Notes: generated from the sequence alone by a model not told the origin. 64,000 bases of DNA from Puniceicoccales bacterium Verruco_02 (GCA_001604585.1 LVBW01000008.1:20146-84145); one strand, 5' to 3'. Shown: positions 6,441 through 25,022, counted from the stretch's first letter. Numbers and translations: made by a program.

Positions 6441-7688
6441 CTAGTGCCCCATCCCACTGCCCTTGAACACAACCTGACCAAGGTTGAAGAGCGGGAAGTA
6501 CACTGCGAAAATGATGCCACCGATGACTACGCTAAGCATTGCCAGCATGAGAGGCTCGATGAGCTTGTTCACCACATCTGCCTGAGACTCCACTTCGGCC
6601 TCGGCGGCATTGGCCACACGGGTCAGTATCGGCCCGGCGGCACCGGTGTGAGAGGCAAGGCGCAGATAGGCGAGAATCTTGGGCGAGTCCTTGCCGAAAA
6701 TCTTCTGATTGTAGGAGAAGGCCACGTGCAGGTCGTCACCCGCGATGATTCGCTGCCCGGTCTCGAGGAGCGCGTCGCGCATCTCAGGGTGCCCGGTTGC
6801 AATGGCGGTGATTTCAAAGGCGCGCCCAATGCGCGTGCCGCCTGCAAGAAGCATGGAAAGAACTCGGAACATTCTGGCAATTAGCATCTTGCGATATAGC
6901 GGCCCCATGACTGGCGCACTAATCATGAACTTGAGCATGTAGCGGGACTGCATAATCTGCCCCCGCTTGGTGAAGATGTAGGTGCCAAGACCGAACAATA
7001 TTACCCAGAACATGGGCTGGTGGCGCACGATGTCGGAAAACTTCACCACTATCTGCGTCATCAGGGGAAGCTCGGCGTTGAAGCTGGCATACTGCTTGGC
7101 CATTGCCGGTATCAGCTTGATACTGATGAACATGACCGAGATGAACGACATTATGGCAACGACTATCGGGTAGGTAAGCCCCCCCTTTAGCTTGCTCGCA
7201 ATTAGCGCGGAACGCTCTTCGTAGATGGCCAGCGCGCTCATAACGCCCTTGAGGTCGCCGCTTGTCTCGCCAGCACGCAAGATAGCAATTGTTGACTCGG
7301 TAAAAATGTTGGGGAACTTCGTCATCGAGTCCGACATGGCCTTGCCGGAGCGCATGTCGCGCATCATTTCACCAATTACGCCGCGAAAGTAGGGGCTTGG
7401 CTGCTGCATGGCAACGATGCCCATGCTGTCCACCATGCTGGTGCCGATGCCAAGACATTCCACAATGCCCTGATAGAAGTCGGCCATGTTCTTGGATGAT
7501 GGGCGTTTGCGTACCTTCAGGGCAGCTAGGCCGAGGTCCAGAGGGGAGATTTCCTCCACGGTCACTATCTCGTCTGCCGATACACCGGCTCCAAGGAGCG
7601 CCGTCTCCGAATCATCGGAGAGGACGACCGTCTCGCGCTTGTTACCGGAATAGCTGTTCTCGGCGATAATCTTGAAGAGTCTGCTCAT
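6441..7688 (-). CDS. Type II secretion / type IV pilus inner-membrane platform protein (GspF/PilC family)
   Basis: 415 aa; LRAGETSGDLKGVMSALAIYEERSALIASKLKGGLTYPIVVAIMSFISV and a second repeat LRLASHTGAAGPILTRVANAAEAEVESQADVVNKLIEPLMLAMLSVVIGGIIFAVYFPLF. Confidence 0.92.
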   Translation of the reverse strand: MSRLFKIIAENSYSGNKRETVVLSDDSETALLGAGVSADEIVTVEEISPLDLGLAALKVRKRPSSKNMADFYQGIVECLGIGTSMVDSMGIVAMQQPSPYFRGVIGEMMRDMRSGKAMSDSMTKFPNIFTESTIAILRAGETSGDLKGVMSALAIYEERSALIASKLKGGLTYPIVVAIMSFISVMFISIKLIPAMAKQYASFNAELPLMTQIVVKFSDIVRHQPMFWVILFGLGTYIFTKRGQIMQSRYMLKFMISAPVMGPLYRKMLIARMFRVLSMLLAGGTRIGRAFEITAIATGHPEMRDALLETGQRIIAGDDLHVAFSYNQKIFGKDSPKILAYLRLASHTGAAGPILTRVANAAEAEVESQADVVNKLIEPLMLAMLSVVIGGIIFAVYFPLFNLGQVVFKGSGMGH

Positions 7689-7805: not shown

Positions 7806-10800
7806 TTAGTAAGTGTCCCCGCTCTCAACGAAACCGTTGAGGTCGAGTTCGCCACCTTCGAGGAGAATGTCCACGTTGTTCTCAATCTGGTTGTTGTTTT
7901 GAAGTATGATGCGGGATGTTCGGCGGCTTGTCTGTGCATTGGTGCCAGCAGTGGCCTGTTCTACGCAGGACATGATTATCGGGCCGTAGCCCGTGGCCTG
8001 ACGGAATATGAAAGCCCCGTCGGAATCCTTCAGCGGGCCCAGTTTGTTTAGATACAGGGTGCCTTCCTGCATGGTGTTGACGCCGTCGTAGGTATTGTCT
8101 TCGGCACCTGTAAAGGTAATGAACCCGTCGTCCTCGATGCGCACTCCTCCCTCGCCGGAGACTACGCCTGTGAGCACAATCGTGCCCTTGCCCGTCAGAC
8201 GCATACGGTAGCCGCCGTTGTTCACTGCGCCGTTGATAGTCAGTCTTGCCCCAGAGGTCGCGTTGAAGTTGAACTCCTCTGCGGCCAGCACATTGCTGTT
8301 TATGACATGGCGGAAGGCCGTTGCGTTGATGGATGCGCCTTCGGTTGTGTCGTTAAGTATGATGTCCGCTCCGCCAAGGCGGTACTCGATATCGGCGGCA
8401 GAGAGCGTGATCGTATGGAGCGACACAGTCTTGGTCAGGGTAACTTCCTCCAGCATAGCCCCATCCACAACGTCCACCGGGTGATACGCTGGGGTGTGCC
8501 AGAAAGTGTTCTGCCTTTCCTTGGATTCAAACTCCACGTCCTCGTATTTGGCCTCCTCGGGCGTACTGCCGACGAGCCAATTCATGCCCGTTTCCCAAAG
8601 CTTGTCGCCGCCGCCGTTGGTCCAGATGAGGCTCTTGAAGGTCGTCACGATGACGTTGCGTATGTCGTGGTTGGCGTAGGTGCCTCCAGTGCTGCTCGCA
8701 AAGCCGAACATGATGTTCTTGGGCCTGACCTGGCTTTTCAGGTCGGCCGTGAAGAGGGCCTCCACATCGCCGGTGCCGTACTTGATGAAGGCGGTAAGCT
8801 GGTTGTCGGGTGTGATGATTACAGACAGACGGCGAAGGTCGGGCTTGAAGATGGGCCTGACCTTGGCGTTGGGGAAGTTCATGTTGCGCTCCAGGTCTGC
8901 CACGTTGTCGTCGCCCGTGCCGACGAGATACTTGTAGTTACTGGCCTCGTCGCCGCGCACGGCTATTGCAGGGTAAATGAAGCCGGGGCCTCCTATGCGT
9001 CCTTCCGTCGGGTTGGAGTAATTACCCCAGTCGTCCATGCCCACGCCAATGTAGCCGCCGGATAGGCCGCCCAAGGGGTCTATCGGTGCGCCGCCAGCAG
9101 AGTATGTGGCATAGTCCACATAGCCGGGCCGGTCCATGGACTCGCTGAAGGAGCCGTGGTTGCCAATCGGGGCCGGAGAGGCGCTGTTGAAGGCGCAACG
9201 TTCGGTCTGGTAGGGGTCCACTCCGCTCTTGTTAAGGTCAAGGTAATCGACAATTACGCGGCGGTTCCAAGTGCCACCGTGATGGATGCAGATCTGCGAT
9301 GCATCGACATCCGCAGTGGTGTAAAAGTTGTGATAGGCAAACAGCGTCCCGAGGGTGAACTCCTGAACTGTGTATGAACCGGCCCTGTCCAAGTCTCCCT
9401 TGCCATAGATTCGCATGTATATCTTGTCTCCGGCGTTCTCGCTGAAGGCCCGCACTGTGATGAGAGTGCCTGTTGTGACGGGTATGGACGCGGTGACGGT
9501 ATTGCTGCTGGCCGTGTATGCGGAGCCGGAGTAGGCGCGCACTCTGTACTGGTAGCTCACGCCGGGGGTGGCTGCATGCGTGTATGTCTTGACGTTGCTG
9601 CCCGCGATGTTGACATCGGTCCAAGAACCAGAGGTACCTTCCCTGTACTGGACGCGGTGGCCGGTCTCGCCAGTGGCGTTGTCCGTCCAGTTGAGCACTA
9701 TGGCGGTGTTAGTGGCGTTGGGCGCGGCGCTAAGACCGGTCGGCGCGTTCATAGTCGAACTTGTGCCTAGGAAGGAGTCGGTCCTCGAAGTGTGAGTATT
9801 GAAGTCCAATGTGGCGTTGTTGCCTGCGAAATACTCGTAGTCCCAGCCATCCCATCCTGGAGATGGAGAAGTGGCGCAGTCCCTCGCCAGATAGGTAGTG
9901 CCATCTATCACCACATAATACACCATCAGGTAATTGTTACTGCGCCAGTCGGTCGTGTTTGTCTCAAACACGATCTTCAGATTACCCAGCGTGAACGCAC
10001 TCGCCTGCGAATGTGTGAACGTGACATCGAGGTCTCCGTAATCGCGATTCCTTGTATTGTATGTCTGGGTATTTACAAGCGTGGAACCAATGTAAACCAA
10101 CATGCGATTGGTAATGCCGTTAATATTAGCCGTACGAGGGTTCACGCGGATTGTGAAGCTGTGCGAGGTGACAATTGTCGAGTCCGAGCCATTGTCGGCA
10201 CTTGCCGCACTGGTTGCCGCGTTTGTCCAACTGGTCCAGTTGGTTGCTGCGCTCCTTACAGAGTTGAGCAAGGTTCCGGTCGCCCTCACGCGATAGTAAT
10301 AGGTGGTGCCGGGGTTAAGCCCTGTGTCAACGTAGCTGGACGTGTTGCGCGGCAGAGTGATCGACACGTAGTTGGCACCGCTTGTGGATGCCGATGTATT
10401 GCGCTCCAGTACGAAGGTCTCTTCGAGCACGGAATTGTCCGTCCAGTATATCATCATCGAGCTGGAGGACAGGGCGCGCGCAGTCAGAGAACTTGGCGCG
10501 TTGTTGATGCTGCTCTGACGGCTCGTGTTGCTCATGGGCGCGTAGCCGAGCGAGCCGCCAAAGCCGCCAACATGAAAGTTGTCCACATAGTCGGCATCGT
10601 AGATATAGAAACTGGTGCCGTCGGCAGACTTTGTGGGACTCTCGCCGCCGCCCGAATCCCAGTGGCTGAAATCGAAGGCTGCGTAAATGGTCAGCCCCTC
10701 GGACTTGACCGGTTTGCCCTTGTAGCGGATGTAGCCGGACTGGTTGCCGACGTTTTCTGTAAGGCGCAGCCAACCCGTCCCGTCGCTATCCTCGCCGCTG

Positions 10801-11024
10801 GCTGCGGTAAGGTATGGCCTTTTTTCGCCAAAATATGAGATGTTGCCCATCTCCCAGTCGCCGGGATTTTCGAGAGAGGTCCCCGTAAACGTCTCCTGCA
10901 CGCGGTTGAGCGTGTTCTCCACCTCCTGCGCCACAAGGGCGGGGCCAGTCGCAGTCGCCGCAATGGCGAGCAGAACCTTGAGAAGGCGGCTGGGGAGGGT
11001 GCTGGTAAAAATGTGGTGCTTCAT
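7806..11024 (-). CDS. Secreted lectin-like protein with FN3 and CBM-like modules and autotransporter-associated beta-strand repeats
   Basis: 1072 aa; signal peptide; DGTSFYIYDAD..VGGFGGSLGYAPM and GGLSGGYIGVGMDDWGNYSNPTEGR resemble bacterial L-type lectin motifs; FN3-type segments (GTTYYYRVRATG, GVSYQYRVRAYSG); the C-terminal GKGTIVLTGVVSGEGGVRIEDDGFITFTGAEDNTYDGVNTMQEGTLYLNK matches the autotransporter-associated beta-strand (PATR) pattern. Confidence 0.7.
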   Translation of the reverse strand: MKHHIFTSTLPSRLLKVLLAIAATATGPALVAQEVENTLNRVQETFTGTSLENPGDWEMGNISYFGEKRPYLTAASGEDSDGTGWLRLTENVGNQSGYIRYKGKPVKSEGLTIYAAFDFSHWDSGGGESPTKSADGTSFYIYDADYVDNFHVGGFGGSLGYAPMSNTSRQSSINNAPSSLTARALSSSSMMIYWTDNSVLEETFVLERNTSASTSGANYVSITLPRNTSSYVDTGLNPGTTYYYRVRATGTLLNSVRSAATNWTSWTNAATSAASADNGSDSTIVTSHSFTIRVNPRTANINGITNRMLVYIGSTLVNTQTYNTRNRDYGDLDVTFTHSQASAFTLGNLKIVFETNTTDWRSNNYLMVYYVVIDGTTYLARDCATSPSPGWDGWDYEYFAGNNATLDFNTHTSRTDSFLGTSSTMNAPTGLSAAPNATNTAIVLNWTDNATGETGHRVQYREGTSGSWTDVNIAGSNVKTYTHAATPGVSYQYRVRAYSGSAYTASSNTVTASIPVTTGTLITVRAFSENAGDKIYMRIYGKGDLDRAGSYTVQEFTLGTLFAYHNFYTTADVDASQICIHHGGTWNRRVIVDYLDLNKSGVDPYQTERCAFNSASPAPIGNHGSFSESMDRPGYVDYATYSAGGAPIDPLGGLSGGYIGVGMDDWGNYSNPTEGRIGGPGFIYPAIAVRGDEASNYKYLVGTGDDNVADLERNMNFPNAKVRPIFKPDLRRLSVIITPDNQLTAFIKYGTGDVEALFTADLKSQVRPKNIMFGFASSTGGTYANHDIRNVIVTTFKSLIWTNGGGDKLWETGMNWLVGSTPEEAKYEDVEFESKERQNTFWHTPAYHPVDVVDGAMLEEVTLTKTVSLHTITLSAADIEYRLGGADIILNDTTEGASINATAFRHVINSNVLAAEEFNFNATSGARLTINGAVNNGGYRMRLTGKGTIVLTGVVSGEGGVRIEDDGFITFTGAEDNTYDGVNTMQEGTLYLNKLGPLKDSDGAFIFRQATGYGPIIMSCVEQATAGTNAQTSRRTSRIILQNNNQIENNVDILLEGGELDLNGFVESGDTY

Positions 11025-11060: not shown

Positions 11061-14000
11061 TCAGGGGACCACCTTGTAGATTGTTCTTGTGTAGGTGGTG
11101 CCATTATCGGCCCGGCGTGTTACCGTGATGGACTCAAGCTTGGCCGCCCCGGTATTGAGGAGCACGTTGGAATCGTTGTAGAACTTGATACGCCCTCGGA
11201 CGGCGGAGCTGGTGATGTCGAAGGAAGTATCGGTTGTGGCCTGACACTCGACAGTAAGCACGTCTCCGGTGCCCCAGTTGCGGATTTCCAGGATTGCGCC
11301 TTCATACACCATTATGTCCTGCACGCTGAGCTTCGATGCCCCCTTGAAGAATATGCGCGAGGTCTTGGACACTGTGAGGTAGGCAAAGCCGGTGCTCGTG
11401 GGCGGTCGGCGTGGGACAATTTCGCCAGTGCTGCTAACATTTGTGCCAATCCAGCGGGCATAGATTACTGGGTTTGCCGGGCGCTCGTCCGGGTCCGGGT
11501 AGAAGGTGTTGATCAGTTCCGGGTACTGGATGCTGCGCAGTGCCGCAAGTCCGGGATACTTCGAATAGAACTTGTCCTTGGTCGTCCAACCGGAAGCTGT
11601 CGAATACTGGTAGTCGTAGATTCTGAGCGTAGCCGAGGAGGCAATGTCCACGTTCTCCACCGTGAACAAGGCCCCGTCTGCCGCCGTTCCTCCAAAGCTG
11701 AGCTGCGAGGGCTTGGTAACGCGGAAGCGACCCTGGAAGGTCTGGTCGAAGCCAGCGAGGGCAAAACGGCCCCCGTCAAGAAGCACAGGCGACTGCGCCG
11801 CATCGTCCTGATAGTGGGTGATGGCGCCGTCCTTTTTCAGCTTCAGCTCGCCCTGCTGGACCACGTAGCGGATGTTGCGCGTCTGGTTGGTCGTGTAGTT
11901 CTGAGGTTTGGCGTTGTAGTAGCCTACTTCAAAGCTTCCGGCGCCAGTCTTGTAAAAACCGTGACTCTGGTTGGCGTCCTTACTGATGTTGCCATTAAGG
12001 GTAAGGCTCATATCGCTACCGACGACGTTGGCCACGACCGGCTTTTTCAGTATGATGTCGGCGTTGACCACATGATGGTCGCCCTCGTTGATGGTAGGCT
12101 CGCTACTGCCCACAACGGTGATCTCCGCGTTGTCGGTAGTGCGGTCGAAGGTGATGCTAGTGCTGCCGCTGCTGCGCCTCGCGAGGGTGAAGCTGCGGTC
12201 CGAATTCTGGAAAAACAGGCCGCCAAGAGTGTAGGCTCCGTCCACAGTCACGGTGCGCCCGACAGGGATCACGTAGCTGAACATGGCGTTGGCGTCCACT
12301 GCGTTGGGGACCTTGCGGGCCTTCCAGCTTTCAAGAACTGTTGTGTTGCTGTCTATGAAGCTCCAGACCGTCTTGGCTGCCTCGTCATATGTGGGTGCCT
12401 CGGCGGGTCTGCCTGCGTAGTTCCACTGGTCCTCGAAGCCGCCGCTGGCGGGCTGCTTGGTATAGACAGCGAGGGTCTCCTCGGCATCGATGAGGAAGAT
12501 GTTCAGGAGCGCGGTGTAGGAGGTGCGGGCCTTTGCACGGAGCGTGGACGAGGTGAAGAATGTCAGGTCTCGCCCGACGGGTATGGGCGAACCTACGATA
12601 TACTTCGATGCCAGCTGCCAGTTGAAGGTCGAGCTGGTGTTGAAGGTGTAGCAGATGTCGTATATATCCTTGTCGCTGATGCCGTGCAGGCCGAGCGTGT
12701 TCTCCGCACTTAGCGTCACGTATAGGAGCGGGTCGGCAAAGGACTGGCTGGGCTTGTCGAGAAGGATGCGCGGCAGGGTCGATGGCTGCGCGCTTAGGTA
12801 ATCGGTCTTGGTAAGGTCGGCGACGAATGGGTTTGTCGAAAGAAGCTGTATGCGCCAGGGGTGCTGGGCAGTGCTGGTAAAGCAGTCCTTCACGACTCTG
12901 GAGGTATAGCCGGTGCTGGCGCTGCCTGTTGTTGCAAGGGACACGCTGCCCACGGTGTTCGTGATGCTTAGCTGGCTGTCAAGAGCCGCCGGTATGGGTA
13001 TCGTCTTGGCAGTGTCGGCATAGAGTTTGATTTCCAGTTGGCCACTGTTCATCAGTAGCTGATCCGCTGCACTGATGGCGGGGAACATGCTGGGCAGTAT
13101 GTCGTAAAGGGTCACCTTGCCGCTCTCGCGCGTGCTGCCGTCGGCGTTCTTCACCACAGCTTCAGCGGTTGGCGTCACCTTGGCCACGTCGATGGAGAAT
13201 GACAGCGGCTCGCTCGATAGGCCACCCGCCTGAGCTACGTAGCTTACTACGAGTGTCGAACTGCCGCCCGCTAGCGGAGAAGCGTCTATCCTGCCGCCAA
13301 AGCTCCAGCCCTCGGGCAGGGAGAAGCCCGCTGGCAGGCCGCCAAGAGAGCCTAGGGATGGGCTGGACGAGTTCGCGGTTCCACTTGTCTGAACGCGTAG
13401 ATTGTCTAGCGGATCTGCGGTGGCAGGCTTGGCCACAAGGTATATCTGCGGCCCAGACGGATCGTTCCAGTTGAGGTCTGTAAGCGCATCCAAGCTGGCG
13501 CTTGAGGCACCGTTCTTGCCAAGGTCAATGGAGCTTAGGTGGTAGCTGTCGCTAACAGGATCGTAAACGACGATGCGGAAAGTGGCCCCGATGGTGAAGG
13601 GGTCGCCCGGCGGCTTGTCCATTGCCACGGGGGACAGGCCCGCGGTGTTGCGGTCCATGATGACAAAGCCCACCGTGTTCATGTTGCTGCGCTGGCCAAG
13701 CATCGAAAGGTCTATCCGGAATGGGCGCACAACCATGCCCTTGCCCAGTTCCTTCTCGCTGAGACCGGCACTGGTGCTGGCAACGGCAAGGCGGTCTCCC
13801 GTCCCCTGCCCCACGGTGTCGAAGCCCTTGCCCGTCCACACTGCGGAATTTGTCGAGGTGGCGTCGATACCCTCTGCGGCAAGCTGGGTCTGAAGGTTGG
13901 CCCATGCGCTGCGGTCACGTTGCGCGAGGCCGCCGATGCGGGCCTCGGAAATCTGGCCCGCCATGAATACGGTGCCGCCGACAAAGCTGGCGATTACCAT

Positions 14001-14075
14001 CGAGCCGATGATGACCTCGATAAGGGTGAAGCCCCGTATGCGGCGGAAGAACGAGCTGTTGGCTATGCGCTTCAT
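11061..14075 (-). CDS. Giant prepilin-like protein: type IV prepilin N-terminal signal plus large beta-strand/adhesin-like region
   Basis: 1004 aa; N-terminus RRIRGFTLIEVIIGSMVIASFVGGTVFMAGQ is a canonical prepilin cleavage/methylation motif; the C-terminal half has beta-helix-like repeats (GAGSFEVGYYNAKPQNYTTNQTRNIRYVVQQGELKLKKDGAI, LLDGGRFALAGFDQTFQGRF). Confidence 0.8.
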   Translation of the reverse strand: MKRIANSSFFRRIRGFTLIEVIIGSMVIASFVGGTVFMAGQISEARIGGLAQRDRSAWANLQTQLAAEGIDATSTNSAVWTGKGFDTVGQGTGDRLAVASTSAGLSEKELGKGMVVRPFRIDLSMLGQRSNMNTVGFVIMDRNTAGLSPVAMDKPPGDPFTIGATFRIVVYDPVSDSYHLSSIDLGKNGASSASLDALTDLNWNDPSGPQIYLVAKPATADPLDNLRVQTSGTANSSSPSLGSLGGLPAGFSLPEGWSFGGRIDASPLAGGSSTLVVSYVAQAGGLSSEPLSFSIDVAKVTPTAEAVVKNADGSTRESGKVTLYDILPSMFPAISAADQLLMNSGQLEIKLYADTAKTIPIPAALDSQLSITNTVGSVSLATTGSASTGYTSRVVKDCFTSTAQHPWRIQLLSTNPFVADLTKTDYLSAQPSTLPRILLDKPSQSFADPLLYVTLSAENTLGLHGISDKDIYDICYTFNTSSTFNWQLASKYIVGSPIPVGRDLTFFTSSTLRAKARTSYTALLNIFLIDAEETLAVYTKQPASGGFEDQWNYAGRPAEAPTYDEAAKTVWSFIDSNTTVLESWKARKVPNAVDANAMFSYVIPVGRTVTVDGAYTLGGLFFQNSDRSFTLARRSSGSTSITFDRTTDNAEITVVGSSEPTINEGDHHVVNADIILKKPVVANVVGSDMSLTLNGNISKDANQSHGFYKTGAGSFEVGYYNAKPQNYTTNQTRNIRYVVQQGELKLKKDGAITHYQDDAAQSPVLLDGGRFALAGFDQTFQGRFRVTKPSQLSFGGTAADGALFTVENVDIASSATLRIYDYQYSTASGWTTKDKFYSKYPGLAALRSIQYPELINTFYPDPDERPANPVIYARWIGTNVSSTGEIVPRRPPTSTGFAYLTVSKTSRIFFKGASKLSVQDIMVYEGAILEIRNWGTGDVLTVECQATTDTSFDITSSAVRGRIKFYNDSNVLLNTGAAKLESITVTRRADNGTTYTRTIYKVVP

Positions 14076-14083
14076 GGCAAAGG

Positions 14084-15649
14084 TTAGGGATTGATTGTGA
14101 CCCTGCTCTGCACGTCCACGAGCAGGTATCTAGGGGCCGAAGTACGGAAGGGGTTGGAGGCAAAGCTGCCAATCGCGATGCTGCCGTTCATGTCCACGGC
14201 TGCCTCGTTCATGCCGTTCCAGGCGACAAGGCCGTTGACGGTCAGCGTGGCACCACTTGCAGCGGCAAGGCCGCCCAAGCGGTCGTCCAGCAGTATCATG
14301 CCGTTCATCGTGGTGTTGGTGCTGGCCGTAATATCCACACCGCTTGCGAATATGTATAGGGGCTGGTCTGTCAGGTTGCCGGTAAGATACACCTGATACT
14401 TGCCCGGCAGTGTGGACTGCTGCGCGGCCTCCCAGCCGTTTATCCAAATGATGACTGGCTGGTTGTAATCGGTAGCCGCGCTGGCGGCACCCGTCACCAC
14501 GCTGTCGCGGATAACGAGGGAAGAATTGACCGAAGCTGGATTGTCAGGCAGCTGGATGTATATGCGGCGAAAACCGTCCAGAAAGGTATCGTGCTCTGGC
14601 TCTGTGCCTCCGCCGTAGTAGCCCATTATGTTGGGGTCGGGCAGGTAGTGAAGGTCGATGTTCCATACGCCGTCCGTCACGTTGCCATCGCTATCGGTGT
14701 TGGCCACGCAGTAAAAACCTTCCAGTCCCGGCGATGGTATGTCGTATGCGGACATGTCCATGCGCGTGAACACCCAGTTCTTGTTCGGGAACAGGGTGCG
14801 GATGTAGTCATCGTCGTAAAAAACCCACTCCCAGAGCAGGCTGGCGGCGCTGAACAGCTCGCGATAGGAATAGGGAAAGTCCACCGCGCTCGAGATGGCG
14901 TTGCCCCCGCCCATCTGCGTCATGGCAAGGCCGTGCAGGGAGCCGTTGGCAAGGGCTGCGGACATGGCGCTTGTGATTGCAGGAGGGCTGGCCGGTATGT
15001 TGGCCGGACTTGTGGCTATTGCGTAAGAAATGAGGTTGTAATCGCTAGCGGGCACCTGATACAGGCGCGTGTACAGGTTGAAGCGCACTGTGTTACCGTC
15101 GCCGGTGCGGTCGATTACGAATTCAAACACATCGTCTGTGGACGCAGCCCCGGCTACGGCGTAAACACTTGCCGGATTGGGCGCGTACTGGCCCACCTTG
15201 CGCTTGCTCGTAACGTTGCCCATAGGGACATCGAAGAGGTTGTAGCTACCGCCTAGAGACTGCGGGTTGCCCCGGATGAGGGGCCAGAAGCTACCGATGC
15301 TGTTGCCGGGCAGGTCGGGGACTGTGCTCGCAGTGTAGGTAACGCCGCTTGAACCCGCCATCGAGCTAAGGAAACTGTTCAAAAGGCTCGTCACCCCGGG
15401 CGAAGCCTTCCCCATGCGGATAAGCTCGTAATGCTCCAGCACGGCCTCCTTCACGATGCGCTCCAAAGCCACGCGCTCGCCCTGATACTGGGTGTAGCGG
15501 TCGAGGCTCTCGCCTACCCCGTTGTCAGAGATGACATTCGTTATGTATGCCTGAAACATCAGCAGCATCACCACGGCCAGAATCAGGGCCATGACGGCCA
15601 CGCCTCCCCGGCGCGAACGGCTGCGAAAAACTGTCTTGATGGCGTGCAT
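14084..15649 (-). CDS. PilX-like / minor pseudopilin-like membrane-anchored protein
   Basis: 521 aa; N-terminal RRGGVAVMALILAVVMLLMFQAYITNVISD single TM typical of PilX-type proteins; adjacent to prepilin genes on the same strand. Confidence 0.55.
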   Translation of the reverse strand: MHAIKTVFRSRSRRGGVAVMALILAVVMLLMFQAYITNVISDNGVGESLDRYTQYQGERVALERIVKEAVLEHYELIRMGKASPGVTSLLNSFLSSMAGSSGVTYTASTVPDLPGNSIGSFWPLIRGNPQSLGGSYNLFDVPMGNVTSKRKVGQYAPNPASVYAVAGAASTDDVFEFVIDRTGDGNTVRFNLYTRLYQVPASDYNLISYAIATSPANIPASPPAITSAMSAALANGSLHGLAMTQMGGGNAISSAVDFPYSYRELFSAASLLWEWVFYDDDYIRTLFPNKNWVFTRMDMSAYDIPSPGLEGFYCVANTDSDGNVTDGVWNIDLHYLPDPNIMGYYGGGTEPEHDTFLDGFRRIYIQLPDNPASVNSSLVIRDSVVTGAASAATDYNQPVIIWINGWEAAQQSTLPGKYQVYLTGNLTDQPLYIFASGVDITASTNTTMNGMILLDDRLGGLAAASGATLTVNGLVAWNGMNEAAVDMNGSIAIGSFASNPFRTSAPRYLLVDVQSRVTINP

Positions 15650-15655
15650 GTTCGT

Positions 15656-16525
15656 TCAGGGCCTCGTGGGCAGGAAAAGGACAAAGCGGGAAAAAGTCTT
15701 GGCGCTATCGGCGCTGGACACCTCGTAAGGATAGGCAGTGGGGTCCGGGAACACCACTTGAGCGCCGAGGTCGTCGCTTATGGCCCAGTCCGTATCGCTG
15801 CGCAGCCAGTAATGCACCGCCCCGGGCAAGACGCCCACATCGTTGGCCACGCTGGTGGCCAGAGAGTATGCGTAGCTAAGCTCCTCGGACAGAGTGCCGC
15901 TAAGGTAGCAACGCACCGTGTAGGTCGTCATTCCCCCACTGTCGCTGCGGCGGCTATGGATTACGATGGGCACGTTACTCGTGCCGCTGATTACGAAAAT
16001 GGAAAAGTCCTCTGCGCTGCCAAGTGCGGACATCGTTACGCCGTTGGTCTGCAACTGGCTCTTGAACTGCGCGGCGCTTGTCAGGCGGGATGGGTGTATG
16101 GCCGCGAGCCACGCCAGAGAGGATGGCGCATATGTGTCCGGGCAGATAGTCGTTGCGTCGCTGCCCTGCCCCTGCTCGCTTCTCCCGCCTAGGACGAACA
16201 CGCTGGAAAGGCCGGGATTTGCCGGGCCTACGGCGTTGGATTGCAGCGCGTCCATGAGCGTGTTCTGGAGCTGCACGGCGTTGGGTAGCTGGCTGTAAGC
16301 CGGGGCAACGGGGATTTTCCGATTCCCCCAGGGCATGTCGTTTGCGGACTCACGCTCGTTAAAGGTGCCTGCCATGTTGGCGAACACGAACACCACCGAA
16401 CCCACGACAAGGGCACCCAACACGGAGGCCAGTATCAGCTCGATGAATGTGAAGGCACTGCGGCGGCGCGGCCTTTCGGCGCTGCGCAGCCCGCTCCGAA
16501 TGCTGAATCGTAGGGACTTGCTCAT
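15656..16525 (-). CDS. Prepilin-type N-terminal cleavage/methylation domain protein (pseudopilin)
   Basis: 289 aa; RRSAFTFIELILASVLGALVVGSVVFVFANM prepilin signal. Confidence 0.85.
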   Translation of the reverse strand: MSKSLRFSIRSGLRSAERPRRRSAFTFIELILASVLGALVVGSVVFVFANMAGTFNERESANDMPWGNRKIPVAPAYSQLPNAVQLQNTLMDALQSNAVGPANPGLSSVFVLGGRSEQGQGSDATTICPDTYAPSSLAWLAAIHPSRLTSAAQFKSQLQTNGVTMSALGSAEDFSIFVISGTSNVPIVIHSRRSDSGGMTTYTVRCYLSGTLSEELSYAYSLATSVANDVGVLPGAVHYWLRSDTDWAISDDLGAQVVFPDPTAYPYEVSSADSAKTFSRFVLFLPTRP

Positions 16526-16879: not shown

Positions 16880-17272
16880 TTAATACGTTATCGTGGAGGC
16901 GCCCTTCTTTAGGACTACTTTCTGCATTACGCCTGACGCGTTGGAGTTCTGAAACTCTATGGTGTAGCCGCTGCCCAGTCGATTGGTCTGGAACGCGGTC
17001 AGGGTGGCGTCGCCATATTCAAGGTATGGGACAAGGAGTAGGTATTTTGCCGAGTGACCGCTGGCGGCGTTCCAAGCGCTGACGCCTTTCTCCATGCGAT
17101 AGCGGGTCTGGGCGAGGTTCAGGGCTTCTGCCGCAGCTATGGCGCGCTGGTCGGAGGCAGCCTCGCGGGTGCCGGATATGCTCGGGATGATTGCTGCGGC
17201 AAGGACGGCCATCACGGCCACCACAACGATCAGCTCGATGAGCGAAAAGGCACTTTTGCGGCAGGTTTTCAT
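16880..17272 (-). CDS. Small type IV pilin / pseudopilin
   Basis: 130 aa; KSAFSLIELIVVVAVMAVLAAAIIPSISGTREA prepilin signal. Confidence 0.88.
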   Translation of the reverse strand: MKTCRKSAFSLIELIVVVAVMAVLAAAIIPSISGTREAASDQRAIAAAEALNLAQTRYRMEKGVSAWNAASGHSAKYLLLVPYLEYGDATLTAFQTNRLGSGYTIEFQNSNASGVMQKVVLKKGASTITY

Positions 17273-17328
17273 TTCCCAGATTATCGGCAGTATGGAGTCT
17301 TGGTCAAGCGGTCGCAGCTAGGAAGAAT

Positions 17329-17685
17329 CTATGGGCCAAGCACTACGCCCCGCCCTACAACGAATGTGAACGTTTCGCCATCCAAATTCGGTTTCTGGCA
17401 GGCAAAGGTGACGGTGTCGTTTCCAAGCGACACCGTCACCCCCGTTGCCAATCGACTGGAAGCACTGTTCCAGTCGGTATATGCAGACATGTTGGCCGTA
17501 TCAGCCGTGTATGCGTCCATGTAGGATTGATTCCAGAGCTGGACCGTGCGCTTGACAGATGCATCGCGGCTTACGCCTACCATGTCATAGATAACAGGTA
17601 TAATGAGCGTTGCCATTACCGCTATTACGGCAATAACTACGATCAACTCAACCAGAGAAAACGCATCACGATTGCGCAATTTCAC
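17329..17685 (-). CDS. Small type IV pilin / pseudopilin
   Basis: 118 aa; RDAFSLVELIVVIAVIAVMATLIIPVIYDMVG prepilin signal; shares RxVQLWNQ(S/T)Y with the neighbour at 17720-18082. Confidence 0.88.
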   Translation of the reverse strand: MKLRNRDAFSLVELIVVIAVIAVMATLIIPVIYDMVGVSRDASVKRTVQLWNQSYMDAYTADTANMSAYTDWNSASSRLATGVTVSLGNDTVTFACQKPNLDGETFTFVVGRGVVLGP

Positions 17686-17719
17686 TCTATTAGTCGACGG
17701 ATATAACCTTGCTACGTAT

Positions 17720-18082
17720 CTAGCGAGTGTTCATGTAGACAAGACCAGTATCAGCAGCAAAAGTAACGGTGCCAGCAGCGAGCGTGAAGCCTGGAGCATT
17801 GAAATTGATGTCTGTCGCACCAACAGTAGCCTGCGCGTCATAGGCAGCAACTGCCGTAGATGCAGCTGCGATTGTTGGTACTGGCGCAGAATTGTTGGCG
17901 GCGCGGGCTTCTAGGTAGGTCTGGTTCCAGAGCTGGACGTTGCGGCGGTCGGACGTACGCTGGGCCTCGACGTTGAAGTTCGAGATGCTGGGCACGATGA
18001 CTGCGGCGATGGCGGCGATAACCGCGATGACGACGATGAGTTCGATTAGGCTGAAGCCCTTCTTACGGTTCTTCTGGTTCAT
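17720..18082 (-). CDS. Small type IV pilin / pseudopilin
   Basis: Reading from the internal Met (MNQKNRKKGFSLIELIVVIAVIAAIAAVIVPSISNF) gives a 120-aa prepilin; the longer ORF to 18193 adds an implausible leader. Confidence 0.88.
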   Translation of the reverse strand: MNQKNRKKGFSLIELIVVIAVIAAIAAVIVPSISNFNVEAQRTSDRRNVQLWNQTYLEARAANNSAPVPTIAAASTAVAAYDAQATVGATDINFNAPGFTLAAGTVTFAADTGLVYMNTR

Positions 18083-18461
18083 TTTCTGTTTTATATCTGA
18101 CTTGTTTAGTTTTTGGGGATCGGAAAGGTAAGCACCCGCGCCTGAATCTGGCGGGACCGGCGCCTGCCCGAAAATGGGTGTGCCGGAACGCACGAATCAG
18201 CCCTCTGCCAAGCAAAGGACGGGCCGAAGCGGCGCTGGAAAGTGGGAAAGCATATTGGCGTGTGCCGGTGGAACTGACTCTGCGACAAGTATATATGGGA
18301 CAGGGACAGGAAAAAGAAGCGCCCAATTATCGGGATTGTCTGAATGAAATCACCCCAGCCGCATGGAGTCAACACCCTAATTTTCTTTTTTGAGCCTTTA
18401 ATTGCGTTATGTGTAAAAAGGAGGAAGGAATCCGGGAGATGAGCGTGAACCTACGATATAC

Positions 18462-20747: not shown

Positions 20748-22391
20748 TTACTTAAACAGATACTTGCGTTCGCCCTTGCTGCCGGGGATGTCGGCCTTGT
20801 TGCGCGATTCCAACTCGGCGTCGAGCTTCTGGAGCATGAGGTCGAGGTTGTCGGTGGTCTTCACTCCGCCAGTGTAGCCGTCCAGAATCGTTGCCGTAAT
20901 GAACATAACAAGGTGGCTCTTGGTGTCGGACGTAGTCTCGTTGCGGAAGAGGTAGCCGATGAGCGGGATGTCGCCAAGAAGGGGCACTTTGTTGTAGCCC
21001 TTGGTGTTGTGCAGCGAATCTAGGCCGCCGATGGCGAGCGTGTTGCCGCTGCCCACAATGGCCTGACCCGTATAGTCGCGGGAGGTCGTGATCGGGATCA
21101 GGTTGCCGCTGATGTCGGCCGTGCCGAGCATGTCGGAAACGTTGATCATGATGTTCAGCTCCACGTTGTTGCCGTCGAGGATGCGGGGCAGAAGGCTGAT
21201 TGTCGTGCCGATGGGGATGAACTGGGTCTCCTCGGTGGCTGTCGAGCTGCCGCCGCCGCTTGTGGAGCTACTGCCGCTCTGGAAGGGCTGCTGGGTGACG
21301 TTGCGCAGGACCACCTGACGGTTGTTCACCGTGACTTGGCTTGGATGCTGGAGGGAGTGGGACTGGGAGTCGGTCGATATGGCGCGCAGCGTGGCCAATA
21401 GCTGAGGCCCACTGAGGATGGCCGTATCGAGGCGGGTGTTCAAGAGCGTGGCCGCGGAGCTCGGCTCGACGCTGCCGGACTGCCTCTGGTTCTGAAGCGT
21501 CATTTCGTAGCCCTTCTCACCCAAGGAGTTACTCCAGTCAACGCCGAGCATGGTCGTCGGGTCGGAGTTGATCTCGACAAAGCGGGTCTCAAGGAGGATG
21601 AGCTTGCGCGGGCGGTCGATGGCCACGAGGTAGGTCTCGATCCAGAGGTGGTGCTCCTTGGTCGCGATGATGAACATGGCGTTCTGGTCGGGGTCGGCAA
21701 TGATGCGGCCCTTCAGCGTCTCCTTCTTCTCGGGCTGGATGTTGCCAAGGCGCATGGCCAGCTCGCTGCTGGGAACCCCTGCCAGAAGCATTGCCGCCGG
21801 ATTGGGGGCGCTCGTGGCCTCCTTCTCGTTCATGGCGAGGTTGGCAGGGTCCAGCTCCAGAAGAGCCTTGATGTCGTTGATGATCTTGCTCGGCGAAGAG
21901 GCAAAGGCCGTGCTGTTCACCGGCTGGGGCAGTGCGCTGCTAGTGTCGCGCCCGGCCGCAGTGTTGAGCGACTCCTGGTTTACGTTCACATCGTTAAGAT
22001 GCAGATGCTTCAGCTCATACACCTTCGGGAAGAGCTTGGAACGCTCCTCCTTCATGGGGCTGAAGTGCCAGAGTCCGTTCTCGTAAAGAGGGACGTAACC
22101 GTAGGTCTCGGCAACAAGCTGGAGAGCCTGAAAGGGATTGCCACGGATTGTCATATCCACAGTGGCGGCGTCCTTTGGCCGGGGAAGACCGATGTATGCC
22201 ATGTCCGACGCCTCGCACAATGTGCGAAGCACCTCTTCCAGCGGGGCCGACTGGAAGCGCATCGTAAGATCAGGCATCTTCATAAGCCGCTGAATCTCCT
22301 GCTCTTCAGCGCGCGAAATGTTGAGTTGTGCGCTGGCGTTGATGCTTGTGAGAGCAAGAGCCAGCAGGGCTATGGTATAGCGGGCTTTCAT
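20748..22391 (-). CDS. Secretin (GspD/PilQ family)
   Basis: 547 aa; signal peptide, STN-like N-domain (MRFQSAPLEEVLRTLCEASDMAYIGL), LILLETRFVEINSDPTTMLGVDW, GSGNTLAIGGLDSLHNTKGYNKVPLLGDIPLIGYLFRNETTSDTKSHLVMFITATIL. Confidence 0.93.
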   Translation of the reverse strand: MKARYTIALLALALTSINASAQLNISRAEEQEIQRLMKMPDLTMRFQSAPLEEVLRTLCEASDMAYIGLPRPKDAATVDMTIRGNPFQALQLVAETYGYVPLYENGLWHFSPMKEERSKLFPKVYELKHLHLNDVNVNQESLNTAAGRDTSSALPQPVNSTAFASSPSKIINDIKALLELDPANLAMNEKEATSAPNPAAMLLAGVPSSELAMRLGNIQPEKKETLKGRIIADPDQNAMFIIATKEHHLWIETYLVAIDRPRKLILLETRFVEINSDPTTMLGVDWSNSLGEKGYEMTLQNQRQSGSVEPSSAATLLNTRLDTAILSGPQLLATLRAISTDSQSHSLQHPSQVTVNNRQVVLRNVTQQPFQSGSSSTSGGGSSTATEETQFIPIGTTISLLPRILDGNNVELNIMINVSDMLGTADISGNLIPITTSRDYTGQAIVGSGNTLAIGGLDSLHNTKGYNKVPLLGDIPLIGYLFRNETTSDTKSHLVMFITATILDGYTGGVKTTDNLDLMLQKLDAELESRNKADIPGSKGERKYLFK

Positions 22392-22399
22392 ACAGGTAT

Positions 22400-22834
22400 T
22401 CAGCGTACTAGGGGGATGGTCATTTTGCGGGTCTCCAGTTCGATGGAGACGTTAACTACGATTTCCGTGGGAGTTACAGATACTATTCGTATCAGACCGG
22501 GAAATGAGAAATCGGAAGCTGGCAGTTCCATGCCGGTCTTGACCGTATAGGAGCCTATCAGCACCGTAGTGCCGTCCGGGTTGCGGTAGTCCGCGGCGAT
22601 TCCCTTCACCTTCAGGGAAAGGAGCTTCTCGCGAACTTGGGCAAACTGCTTCTCGCGCGCCTCGACGGCGGGGTCCACGGCCTTTTTGGCTGGGGTAGCC
22701 TTGGCCGTCTCGCTCTTGAGCGCGGTTGGGTCTGGCACTTCAAAGGGATTGCGCAGACCGGCTGGCACGGGGATGGAGGCCTCAAGCTGGAGGGCCACGC
22801 CGCAGAGAAGGACGATATAAATGGCTTTCTTCAT
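22400..22834 (-). CDS. Small periplasmic assembly protein (PilP/GspC-like position)
   Basis: 144 aa, signal peptide, LRNPFEVPDP motif; positioned directly before the secretin. Confidence 0.4.
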   Translation of the reverse strand: MKKAIYIVLLCGVALQLEASIPVPAGLRNPFEVPDPTALKSETAKATPAKKAVDPAVEAREKQFAQVREKLLSLKVKGIAADYRNPDGTTVLIGSYTVKTGMELPASDFSFPGLIRIVSVTPTEIVVNVSIELETRKMTIPLVR

Positions 22835-22856
22835 GGCTATGATGCTTTGCGCTGGC

Positions 22857-23411
22857 CTATCGGCTTATCACGTTGGGGTCCATTCGTGGGAAGAGTATCT
22901 TCGTCTGAACGCTGACGTAGTCTCCCGAGGGGGTGTAGGTGACGCTGATAACTCTTGCAAAGGGGAAGGATTCCTCGATTTTGCCAAGCCATACCAGAGA
23001 ATCACGGAAGCTGCTCAGGATGGATATCGAGTACTCGTGCATCGACACTGTGCCCATTGCCGCGTTGGTGCGACTGGCCATCTTACGCTCGTCGGTCTTC
23101 TGCTCCTGAATGGGGATACGCAAAGCTTCTGACTCCGAAGCAAGGCGCTGGTTGATGGAGTTAAGCTCCAACATTCCCTGCAAGGTGGCACCGTTCTGCT
23201 GCATGAAGCGCGCAACATCGTCGTTGCCAAGACGGAGCTGAAGCTGGCGGTTCTTGGACTGAGTGTCGCGGGTGGAGTCGGACAGGCTCAACATGGCAAC
23301 GTCAAGCTCGCTCTTTGCCAGGTTCACCTTGCTGACCTGATCCAGAGTCACCTTGCCCAATAGAAATATGATGGCCAGTATGGTCGCTATGCCTGCTAGA
23401 TAGTCTTTCAT
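22857..23411 (-). CDS. PilO/GspM-like inner-membrane protein
   Basis: 184 aa; one N-terminal TM (LAGIATILAIIFLLGKVTL) plus coiled coil; operon position between PilN-like and PilP-like genes. Confidence 0.4.
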   Translation of the reverse strand: MKDYLAGIATILAIIFLLGKVTLDQVSKVNLAKSELDVAMLSLSDSTRDTQSKNRQLQLRLGNDDVARFMQQNGATLQGMLELNSINQRLASESEALRIPIQEQKTDERKMASRTNAAMGTVSMHEYSISILSSFRDSLVWLGKIEESFPFARVISVTYTPSGDYVSVQTKILFPRMDPNVISR

Positions 23412-23462
23412 GTCGAAATAGGTTTATATGTGCTTGTTGCGGTGGATTGGACCTAATAGCTC

Positions 23463-24023
23463 CTAACCCTTACTTGCGGACGAGGGCACAGGCTGGTTGT
23501 AACTGCGCATGATCCTGAACTTGGCCTTGAACACCGTGGCACCCACGGCCTGATTCTGCTCAAGAAGCTGAATGGCAAGGCCCTTCTCCTGAAGAAAGCT
23601 CGTCATCTCGCGGAAATACTGGGCACTGGTGTTGCGATCGCTGTTGATGGCGATTGTAAGGTCCACAGTGCCCTCATCGCTATTGTGGGAAATGACCATC
23701 TGCGATAGGCGCACCTCTTCGGGCAGCTGAGAGAAAAACTCCACAAGGTGCTCCTGCATGGGGATACTCTGCGAGCGCCACTCGGCCAGCCACAGCATAT
23801 GGTTCTGGGTCTTGATCCTGCGCGACACATCGTCCAGCTGAATCTGCACCTCCTGCTTTTTCCACTTAAGCCAAGTCCCCCAGGCTGCGTGACCAGCAGT
23901 GGTCAGAATGCACATGGCAACAAGAAAGTATGCAAGGTGCATAACCACCTTGTACTGCGGGGGCAGATAGGCGCGATTGCCCTTTATCTTGGCGTTGGAA
24001 CGCAAATCGTAGGCTGCTGTCAT
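23463..24023 (-). CDS. PilN-like inner-membrane protein
   Basis: 186 aa; N-terminal cytoplasmic segment then TM (VVMHLAYFLVAMCILTTAGHAAW), followed by a periplasmic PilN-like fold candidate; operon position. Confidence 0.45.
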   Translation of the reverse strand: MTAAYDLRSNAKIKGNRAYLPPQYKVVMHLAYFLVAMCILTTAGHAAWGTWLKWKKQEVQIQLDDVSRRIKTQNHMLWLAEWRSQSIPMQEHLVEFFSQLPEEVRLSQMVISHNSDEGTVDLTIAINSDRNTSAQYFREMTSFLQEKGLAIQLLEQNQAVGATVFKAKFRIMRSYNQPVPSSASKG

Positions 24024-24035
24024 GGCTCTTGCTTC

Positions 24036-24953
24036 CTAGTCTCTGATTAGGGCGTGGAACACGCGGTTGACGGGGGTTTCGTTCTTTCCGGGCGGGGTCT
24101 TCACTGTCAGCTTGGGGCGCAGTTCCTTGATGCGTGCCTCCCAGCCCAGGTGCTCGTCGGCGCCCTGCTGGTCCACGACCAGTATCAGCTCGCCCTCCTT
24201 TGGCAGTATCTGCTCTACAAGGTTGCGCTGACGCTTTATTTCCACCGCCCCGGTTGTGGGGTTTTCGGAACGGTTGCGAAGGAGCATCCATTCATGGTCG
24301 CTGCGCACATCGACCTCCAAATACAGCACCGAGCAACCGGAGATAATCAGCATGTTGTGCGGGATGATGCCTTTGTAAGTTTCCACTACTTCGGCAAATA
24401 GGCTGCCTATACTGTGTTGCAGGCGAACGCAGATGATGCCGGACTGCTCCAATATGCGCTCAAGGGCGGTGATTACCGTCTGCTCGTAGGAGAATACTAT
24501 CGAACTTTCGCGCGTTGGATGCTGAACCAGCGAGTAGGAATGCCCGGCCTCGAAATCGTCGCCCATGACGCGCTGCGGGTTCTCCTTGAGCAGGGCAAAG
24601 AGGTTCTCGCTGCGCTTGACAGTGAAGCTCTTCACCGCGTTGAAGCCGTGGTTGTATGCCACTACGGCGGGCACTCCCGGATTCTCCTTGGCAATGTTGG
24701 AGAGAATGCGCATCAGCTCGTTGTCCGAGGGGCCTTCGCGGTTTATCGTGCCGACCATCTCTACGTGGACAGTGCTGCCAAAGTGCAGCTTTGCCAGCTT
24801 TATGCAGTTGGGATAGATGACTATGCCGATGAGACGCTGACGGGCAAAGCGCATCCTGAGCGGAGCTGTCATGTCGAAGGCATCCGGACGAAAGGCCCTG
24901 AGCGTTAACAGGTTGACCAACTGGACTACAAATGGATCTTCGAGCAGGCTCAT
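24036..24953 (-). CDS. PilM/GspL-like actin-fold assembly protein
   Basis: 305 aa; position between the GspE ATPase and the PilN-like gene; IGIVIYPNCIKLAKLHFGSTVHVEMVGTI resembles a PilM-type N-terminal strand pattern. Confidence 0.5.
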   Translation of the reverse strand: MSLLEDPFVVQLVNLLTLRAFRPDAFDMTAPLRMRFARQRLIGIVIYPNCIKLAKLHFGSTVHVEMVGTINREGPSDNELMRILSNIAKENPGVPAVVAYNHGFNAVKSFTVKRSENLFALLKENPQRVMGDDFEAGHSYSLVQHPTRESSIVFSYEQTVITALERILEQSGIICVRLQHSIGSLFAEVVETYKGIIPHNMLIISGCSVLYLEVDVRSDHEWMLLRNRSENPTTGAVEIKRQRNLVEQILPKEGELILVVDQQGADEHLGWEARIKELRPKLTVKTPPGKNETPVNRVFHALIRD

Positions 24954-25022
24954 TGGGGGGATTCTTGATTTATGCGAAGTTGTTTTCTGGGGGACGTGGT
25001 ACTTGTCAGGTCCGCTATGGGC

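What the first reader, a model, noticed from the sequence alone, without database searches (positions are those of the whole stretch)
11061..14075. 1004-aa protein with a canonical prepilin signal and an autotransporter-type beta-strand C-terminal region
Pilins and pseudopilins are usually 100-300 aa. This protein has GFTLIEVIIGSMVIASF at its N-terminus, an Ig-like middle and a C-terminal half resembling autotransporter-associated beta-strand repeats (GAGSFEVGYYN...YVVQQGELKLKKDG, LLDGGRFALAGFDQTFQGRF). A passenger-like adhesin carried on a pilin N-terminus would be a tip or shaft adhesin delivered by the pseudopilus rather than by a type V barrel.
Basis: partly seen in the sequence, partly recalled or inferred. 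Interest (0 to 1): 0.75.

Follow-up and report, generated by a model that had tools for sequence, protein, structure and literature searches.

The report
Giant pilin beside secreted lectin gene
In an uncultured Opitutales bacterium, a pilus subunit about six times normal size carries the tail half of a surface lectin-type protein, and the very next gene makes the sugar-binding front half, so the two together look like a lectin split in two and moved onto a pilus.

Summary
The 1004-aa ORF is real and begins with a genuine prepilin signal; three relatives keep it (FTLIE, FTLVE, IVLID). It sits in a complete type IV filament operon, close to gspF. Its middle has a chitobiase-type Ig domain. Its C-half is a PATR stretch plus the C-terminal 'cap' module (ending GEIVPRRP) of Opitutales lectin-PATR-PEP-CTERM surface proteins. 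Profile-profile scores are 43.9 and 49.2, against at most about 21 for shuffled, reversed and other controls. No solenoid structure was obtained with confidence (pLDDT 52). The sister genome with a different pilin C-terminus (G001) has no lectin relative anywhere. Best reading: a modular minor pilin, probably at the filament tip, presenting a co-operonic lectin, analogous to TcpB/TcpF and CofB/CofJ. Tip location, docking and sugar binding are all inferred. It is a new variant of a known kind (modular pilin), rare: 4 genomes found.

The parts
13875..14075 (-). Giant pilin, aa 1-67: 15-aa leader ending RRIRG, then FTLIEVIIGSMVIASF... alpha-1 helix
   Evidence: TIGR02532 19.1 bits (cut-off 16.3); PF07963 22.1 bits in genome search; helix H18-67 in a low-confidence model; 70% identical to the G002 ortholog over aa 1-70
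12786..13874 (-). Giant pilin, aa 68-430: beta-rich region with no family match; its start presumably the pilin head
   Evidence: No Pfam match; conserved in four orthologs; strands in the model, pLDDT 28-71
12456..12785 (-). Giant pilin, aa 431-540: CHB_HEX_C/Fn3-associated Ig-like domain
   Evidence: CHB_HEX_C_1 E 6.6e-4, 2.9e-3, 1.3e-3 at the equivalent place in G002, G001, G010; all below curated cut-off; not detected in the window protein itself
11766..12305 (-). Giant pilin, aa 591-770: PATR-type stretch
   Evidence: PATR HMM from lectin-PATR proteins E=4.2e-6, best of 1000 shuffles 0.23; hhalign 49.2 against shuffled maximum 21.1
11397..11765 (-). Giant pilin, aa 771-893: cap module ending GEIVPRRPP, as found just before PEP-CTERM in lectin-PATR proteins
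   Evidence: hhalign of 3 orthologs against the caps of L091/L098/L099/L100: score 43.9, P 1.1e-5, 147 columns over aa 707-892; controls about 21 or less after two artefact alignments are set aside
11061..11396 (-). Giant pilin, aa 894-1004: second cap-like segment (YLTVSKTSRIFF...LEIRNW) and tail, with stop codon
   Evidence: Second alternative alignment to the cap, 37 columns, P 0.0035; weak
7806..11024 (-). Secreted lectin/PATR partner protein, 1072 aa, Sec-type signal peptide (...ATGPALVAQ)
   Evidence: Next gene, 36 bp after the pilin; fn3 E 1.1e-11; L-type lectin PF18483 E 4.9e-7 in the G010 ortholog and CBM60 E 5e-5 in the G002 ortholog; homologous to the 1769-1800 aa lectin-PATR-PEP-CTERM proteins L098/L099, E 3e-53 and 6e-41
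9165..10511 (-). Partner, aa 172-620: fn3 - CBM-like - fn3 - CBM60-like block inserted into the lectin domain
   Evidence: fn3; match to CBM60 structure 2xhh E 2.4e-5; absent from the 529-aa G010 ortholog; A2 positions 165-626 are skipped in L098 and L099
7806..8630 (-). Partner, aa 799-1072: PATR stretch ending LEGGELDLNGFVESGDTY, with neither cap nor PEP-CTERM
   Evidence: lecC HMM finds PATR proteins at E 5.6e-12; the end aligns to cap-profile position 75 of 177 and to L099 1619-1676 of 1800; all three orthologs stop at the same point
14084..15649 (-). PilX/GspK-like minor pilin, 521 aa
   Evidence: Hydrophobic N-terminus without Glu5; conserved in four genomes
15656..16525 (-). PilW/GspJ-like prepilin, 289 aa
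   Evidence: PF07963 19.3 bits, below cut-off; N-terminus matches J-position pilins of distant machines, hhalign 60.6
16880..18193 (-). Three small GspG/GspH-like prepilins (16880-17272, 17329-17685, 17720-18193)
   Evidence: PF07963 and TIGR02532 above cut-off
6441..7688 (-). GspF/PilC-type platform protein with an extra N-terminal region shared only by this machine type
   Evidence: PF00482 E 4.5e-37; GspF 194.9 bits; N-terminal profile E below 1e-19 in 22 distant genomes
20748..27269 (-). Secretin (20748-22391), positional PilP/O/N/M-like genes (22400-24953), GspE-type ATPase (25023-27269)
   Evidence: Secretin PF00263 E 3.6e-36; T2SSE E 2.4e-100 and MshEN E 3.2e-8; the PilM-P-like genes have no Pfam match and are named by position only

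Best explanation
The 1004-aa protein is a modular minor pilin (I-position, PilV/GspI-like by gene order) of a lineage-specific type IV filament in Opitutales. Shown: it has a prepilin N-terminus, lies in a complete filament operon, and its C-half is related to the C-terminal part (PATR plus cap) of lectin-PATR-PEP-CTERM surface proteins, with the PEP-CTERM anchor absent. Shown: the next gene encodes a signal-peptide protein equivalent to the N-terminal part (lectin plus first PATR section) of such a protein, lacking cap and anchor. Inferred: prepilin peptidase processes the pilin; it is built into the filament, probably at the tip with the PilX- and PilW-like pilins; the periplasmic lectin binds it and is carried out through the secretin; the pair binds polysaccharide in the surroundings. 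The pilin membrane helix would thus replace the PEP-CTERM anchor as the way to present the lectin outside the cell.
For: Prepilin signal above the NCBIfam cut-off, kept in three orthologs. One prepilin peptidase (PF01478) in each of the four genomes. Filament operon with secretin, GspE and GspF. C-half against cap 43.9 and against PATR 49.2, controls about 21 or less. Lectin homology E 3e-53 to 1800-aa lectin-PATR-PEP-CTERM proteins, ending where the cap starts. The two genes are adjacent in all three genomes that carry the PATR pilin, with a 4-bp overlap in G010. G001, whose pilin C-half is not PATR (17.3 and 17.4), has no lectin relative anywhere in its genome. In the partner, the lectin core (70%) and PATR (51%) are among the best conserved parts between window and G002, while the inserted fn3/CBM domains are only 23-39% identical. 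Precedents: modular pilins PilB (PMC8179133) and PilC with a lectin module (PMC9934059); minor pilin TcpB or CofB carrying the secreted TcpF or CofJ (PMC9565799).
Against: No confident structure: pLDDT 42 whole, 52 C-half; Foldseek gives no PDB match below E 0.015. The window pilin alone gives no significant cap match; the signal needs the three-ortholog profile, and only the G010 pilin hits the cap HMM on its own, E 5.8e-4. Co-occurrence of PATR half and lectin rests on four genomes. I-type identity beyond the shared prepilin N-terminus is weak: 47.2 against 41.7 and 42.2, where correct types score about 60. No interaction, location or glycan-binding data exist.
Confidence: 0.6

Rival explanations
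1. A type II-like secretion machine: the giant pilin is a tip pseudopilin and the lectin is simply a substrate released into the medium, not displayed on a filament.
For: GspF 194.9 bits and GspG-like small pilins; the secreted protein has a signal peptide and no anchor; T2SS and type IV pili share the parts found here.
Against: PATR homology between pilin and partner and their joint absence in G001 suggest a specific partnership; the small pilins reach no GspG, GspH or GspI cut-off.
Confidence: 0.22
2. The PATR half of the pilin is only a stalk or itself binds a ligand (as the ComZ beta-solenoid binds DNA), and the neighbouring lectin works independently after being brought in by chance duplication of PATR DNA.
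For: A pilin with a beta-solenoid that acts at the tip is known (ComZ, PMC6561018). The pilin and lectin PATR parts are only distantly alike: direct hhalign P 0.0019.
Against: Same gene order in two genera and joint absence in G001.
Confidence: 0.13
3. The giant pilin descends from the 850-aa prepilin that heads the operon in distant relatives (prepilin, Fn3-associated/CHB_HEX, DUF7305), moved beside gspF; the PATR tail is a later swap, and the protein has a structural shaft role rather than an adhesive one.
For: The L048 operon-head pilin has N_methyl, Fn3_assoc E 7e-10 and DUF7305 E 8e-4; the G001 giant pilin aligns to these over 337 columns, P 7e-6.
Against: Window and G002 pilins match the heads only over the prepilin region when used alone; the gene position differs. 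This speaks to origin and does not exclude adhesion.
Confidence: 0.05

Closest known systems
Modular type IV pilins (S. sanguinis PilB and PilC; PMC8179133, PMC9934059)
   Same: Prepilin N-terminus with a large C-terminal module not specific to pili; PilC has an Ig-like module followed by a lectin module; predicted tip location
   Different: Here the graft is PATR plus the cap of a PEP-CTERM protein, the whole protein is 1004 aa, and the lectin lies on a separate co-operonic protein
TcpB/TcpF and CofB/CofJ (type IVb minor pilin plus secreted colonization factor; PMC9565799)
   Same: Large minor pilin with a beta-rich C-terminal extension and a soluble partner protein encoded with the pilus genes
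   Different: No sequence relation was tested or is expected; TcpF and CofJ bind through a short N-terminal peptide, whereas here both partners carry PATR; other phylum; several small pilins in the operon
ComZ of Thermus thermophilus (PMC6561018)
   Different: ComZ's solenoid is inserted into the pilin beta-sheet and binds DNA; here the module is C-terminal, of PATR type, and next to a lectin gene
Opitutales lectin-PATR-PEP-CTERM proteins (for example L098 1769 aa, L099 1800 aa)
   Same: The partner gene matches their lectin and PATR parts (E 3e-53, 6e-41); the pilin C-half matches their C-terminal cap
   Different: In the window the parts are divided between two genes, one of them a pilin, and the PEP-CTERM anchor is absent from both
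Verru_Chthon prepilin cassette (TIGR02596-TIGR02600)
   Same: A verrucomicrobial cluster of prepilin-like genes
   Different: Only sub-cut-off hits, all on small pilins and none on the giant one

Membership tests
Modular type IV pilin | Prepilin (class III) signal with Gly-1 and Glu+5 | tested here: met
   TIGR02532 19.1 bits against 16.3; G/FTLIE in window and G002, G/FTLVE in G001, G/IVLID with Asp5 in G010
Modular type IV pilin | Extra C-terminal domain not specific to pilus biology | tested here: met
   PATR and cap module by profile comparison
Modular type IV pilin | Encoded with a type IV filament assembly machine | tested here: met
   Secretin, GspE, GspF and other prepilins in the same operon
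Modular type IV pilin | Pilin fold (long helix on a beta-sheet) | tested here: inconclusive
   Helix 18-67 followed by strands, but pLDDT around 30-40 there
Modular type IV pilin | Incorporated in, or capping, the filament | not testable with these tools
   Needs pilus preparations or microscopy
PATR (autotransporter-associated beta strand repeat) | Match above the curated PF12951 cut-off | tested here: not met
   No match in the window protein; only one other ORF of the genome passes, on C97
PATR (autotransporter-associated beta strand repeat) | Homology to PATR proteins beyond chance | tested here: met
   HMM E 4.2e-6; hhalign 49.2 against shuffles of at most 21.1
Type V autotransporter | C-terminal outer-membrane beta-barrel | tested here: not met
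   No barrel domain among Pfam matches up to E 10 for pilin or partner
L-type lectin (partner gene) | PF18483 above curated cut-off | tested here: not met
   30.3 bits, E 4.9e-7, against a cut-off of 78.3 in G010; 17.8 bits in G002; no hit in the window copy, whose lectin domain is interrupted
TcpB/TcpF-type pilin plus secreted partner | Same-operon protein with signal peptide that binds the minor pilin | tested here: inconclusive
   Operon and signal-peptide-like start seen; binding not testable
PilY1 tip adhesin | PF05567 beta-propeller | tested here: inconclusive
   No match in the four genomes, but no control genome rang either
Verru_Chthon cassette | TIGR02596-TIGR02600 above cut-off | tested here: not met
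   Best 18.3 bits against a cut-off of 70, on a small pilin

The most novel reading that the evidence does not exclude
A surface lectin has been split into two gene products: its C-terminal PATR/cap part was fused to a pilin and its N-terminal lectin/PATR part was left as an exported protein with an open-ended solenoid. The two PATR faces stack end to end and rebuild one continuous solenoid on the pilus tip, so a pilin replaces the PEP-CTERM/exosortase anchor.
Probability: 0.25. Interest if true: 0.72.

Novelty: new variant of a known kind. Interest (0 to 1): 0.5.

Why it matters
It shows where a pilin's grafted module came from: a cell-surface lectin whose parts are now shared between a pilin and its operon neighbour. 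If the two dock, it gives a case outside the type IVb pili of enteric pathogens in which a minor pilin presents a co-operonic secreted protein, with a docking surface (PATR on both sides) that can be predicted and mutated. It also suggests how uncultured Opitutales may hold polysaccharide, and that verrucomicrobial filament operons are a source of unannotated modular pilins.

Tried and rejected
First genome-contig scan with the full protein found nothing; a machine-specific GspF N-terminus was used instead. Full-length AlphaFold was poor; the cropped C-half was better but still low, so its Foldseek hits (EspP, Hap, SepA, Ag43 and other beta-helices, none below E 0.015) count only as a tendency. 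Iterating the PATR HMM beyond the first round diluted it and lost the pilin, so only round 1 and the profile-profile tests are used. I tested whether the giant pilin is the ortholog of the small prepilin that sits before gspF in distant genomes: the N-terminus fits that type best, but barely, so equivalence is positional only. Two of 200 shuffled profiles gave huge scores; they were 5- and 10-column artefacts. PilY1 absence could not be claimed because the control failed. Direct pilin-lectin profile comparison gave only a weak 34-column match. A chance frame or assembly artefact was rejected because orthologs have similar length and the same neighbours.

Full report
What is there. The ORF at 11061-14075 on the minus strand encodes 1004 aa. 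The window lies on contig C100 of a 2.70-Mb, 101-contig assembly; its nearest relatives are MAGs titled Opitutales and Puniceicoccales. The N-terminus reads MKRIANSSFFRRIRG/FTLIEVIIGSMVIASF: Gly at -1, Phe at +1, Glu at +5. TIGR02532 scores 19.1 bits against a cut-off of 16.3. PF07963 scores 22.1 (cut-off 21.2) in the genome search and is one of 13 such hits in the genome, five of them in this cluster; in hmmscan of the protein it stays just below cut-off at 18.3.

Surroundings. The genes from 27269 down to 3534 run on the minus strand: a GspE-type ATPase with an MshEN domain, four genes in the positions of PilM/N/O/P without Pfam matches, a secretin (PF00263 E 3.6e-36), a 658-aa membrane protein without Pfam match, three small GspG/H-like prepilins, a PilW/GspJ-like prepilin, a 521-aa PilX/GspK-like protein, the giant pilin, a 1072-aa secreted protein, GspF and a PEGA/TonB-C protein. 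One prepilin peptidase gene is found elsewhere in each of the four genomes.

Relatives. Searches of 55 relatives and 371 genomes of the order found full-length relatives only in G001 and G002 (same genus) and G010 (same family, another genus): 864, 1008 and 940 aa. All keep the prepilin start; G010 has Asp at +5. Divergence between window and G002 is concentrated at third codon positions (0.43/0.34/0.72), as expected for a gene under selection. A GspF N-terminal profile marks the same type of machine in 22 further genomes of the class at E below 1e-19. In the neighbourhoods read, wherever a prepilin could be recognised immediately before gspF it is small, 127-205 aa as called. The giant pilin (with the lectin gene added between it and gspF in three of four genomes) therefore occupies the place of a small PilV/GspI-type pilin. 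That equivalence is positional: the N-terminal profile fits that type best (47.2 against 41.7 and 42.2), but correct types in the same test score about 60.

The middle. CHB_HEX_C_1 (chitobiase C-terminal, Ig-like) is found at the same place in all three orthologs (E 6.6e-4, 2.9e-3, 1.3e-3, all below curated cut-off). Pfam reports nothing there in the window copy.

The C-half. Pfam PATR does not hit the window protein. An HMM built from the partner's PATR region plus PATR proteins of the order scores the pilin E=4.2e-6, against 0.23 for the best of 1000 shuffles; further rounds lose it. Profile-profile comparison of the three PATR-bearing orthologs gives 49.2 against that PATR profile, with shuffles up to 21.1. 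The second half matches a module that I call the cap: the last roughly 100 aa before the PEP-CTERM signal in PATR proteins of the order (L091, L098, L099, L100), typically ...NW...GGGTDQ...GEVVPVPEP. Pilin aa 707-892, ending GEIVPRRPP, align to it over 147 columns (score 43.9, P 1.1e-5). Controls: shuffled profiles 21.0 or less apart from two 5-10-column artefacts, reversed 15.0, pilin middle 16.3, PilX-like 16.5, C-half of the G001 pilin 17.3. The window sequence alone is not enough (20.5); the ortholog profile is needed.

Structure. AlphaFold on the whole protein: mean pLDDT 42. On the C-half: 52, pTM 0.56, best stretch pLDDT 58-86 around aa 735-825, almost only short strands. Foldseek against the PDB lists mainly beta-helix adhesins and autotransporter passengers near the top (4wa0, Candida Awp1, 7jvi, EspP, Hap, SepA) but none below E 0.015. 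This is compatible with a solenoid and does not prove it.

The partner. The gene at 7806-11024 begins 36 bp after the pilin stop; in G010 the two genes overlap by 4 bp. It starts with a signal-peptide-like sequence. Its G010 ortholog (529 aa) matches the L-type lectin domain (E 4.9e-7, below curated cut-off), and the G002 ortholog matches CBM60 (E 5e-5). The window copy has two fn3 domains (E 1.1e-11), and the profile of the three orthologs matches the CBM60 structure 2xhh (E 2.4e-5). Compared with L098 and L099, the fn3/CBM block is an insertion into the lectin domain. The partner HMM hits these 1769- and 1800-aa lectin-PATR-PEP-CTERM proteins at E 3e-53 and 6e-41, and 27 of 272 genomes of the order, including three with this operon, have a match at E 1e-15 or better. 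All three operon copies stop at EGGx(x)xLNGxxE, which corresponds to position 1676 of 1800 in L099 and to position 75 of 177 of the cap profile: the cap and the PEP-CTERM are missing.

Putting the two together. One gene carries the front of a lectin-PATR-PEP-CTERM protein, the next carries the back of such a protein on a pilin, and neither keeps the PEP-CTERM. The parts overlap in PATR, so this is not an exact cut of one gene. In G001 the pilin C-half is not PATR (17.3 and 17.4); it resembles the CHB_HEX/DUF7305 region of other large verrucomicrobial pilins (P 7e-6, 337 columns). No lectin relative exists anywhere in that genome, which is 94% complete. Four genomes are few, but the two features come and go together in all of them.

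Mechanism. By established knowledge of type IV filaments, a prepilin with this start is cleaved, assembled from the inner membrane and pushed through the secretin. Bulky pilins are argued to fit only at the tip (PMC8179133, PMC6561018), and in TcpB/TcpF and CofB/CofJ a minor pilin carries a soluble partner out of the cell (PMC9565799). The proposal here is the same with different parts: the giant pilin presents the lectin, possibly by stacking PATR on PATR. Shown: gene order, homologies, missing anchors, co-absence. Inferred: processing, tip location, binding, glycan target.

Novelty. Modular pilins are known: more than 1200 proteins in 264 architectures (PMC8179133), including a lectin pilin (PMC9934059). 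A beta-solenoid pilin is known too (ComZ, PMC6561018). What I did not find described is a pilin whose graft is related to a PEP-CTERM surface lectin whose other half is the neighbouring gene. The paper searches covered open-access text only and do not prove absence.

Noticed in passing
L048:9674-12229 (-), L049:10012-12579 (-), L053:9751-12327 (-), L058:6668-9205 (+), L059:7094-9709 (+), L060:6909-9536 (+), L062:6406-9252 (+): In distant Verrucomicrobiota the same machine has an 845-948 aa prepilin near the head of the pilus cluster; in L048 it carries Fn3-associated/CHB_HEX and DUF7305 domains: a second, apparently undescribed group of very large modular pilins.
   Followed up: partly
L008:7184-9778 (-): G001's giant pilin has a different C-terminus (DUF7305-like region) from its sister species, an apparent module swap within one genus.
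   Followed up: partly
window 18664-20640 (-): 658-aa multi-pass membrane protein without any Pfam match between the secretin and the pilin genes, also in G002 (L006:15286-17322); could be a glycosyltransferase acting on pilins.
   Followed up: no
window 27751-29367 (-), 35009-36445 (-), 36571-37083 (-): Response regulator-SpoIIE phosphatase-HATPase protein, a second GAF-SpoIIE-like protein and a STAS-like protein around the pilus operon (only 27751-29367 was scanned); the first is also beside the operon in G002 (L007:4477-6057) and G010 (L009:16735-18333), suggesting partner-switch control of the filament.
   Followed up: partly
window 29797-33420 (+): 1207-aa protein with an N-terminal receiver domain followed by about 1000 residues of low-complexity coiled coil.
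   Followed up: no
window 6441-7688 (-): The GspF has a conserved extra N-terminal region of about 65 aa (K.x.EN...E..V...D...A) that marks one type of verrucomicrobial machine and separates it from ordinary PilC.
   Followed up: partly
window 3534-6089 (-): 851-aa protein with three PEGA domains and a TonB-C-like end, following gspF; conserved in G001 and G002.
   Followed up: no
L098:3485-8794 (+), L099:2834-8236 (-): L-type lectin-PATR-PEP-CTERM proteins of 1769-1800 aa; relatives (E 1e-15 or better) in 27 of 272 genomes of the order, including three with the pilus operon; no NCBIfam name was returned for two operon copies.
   Followed up: partly
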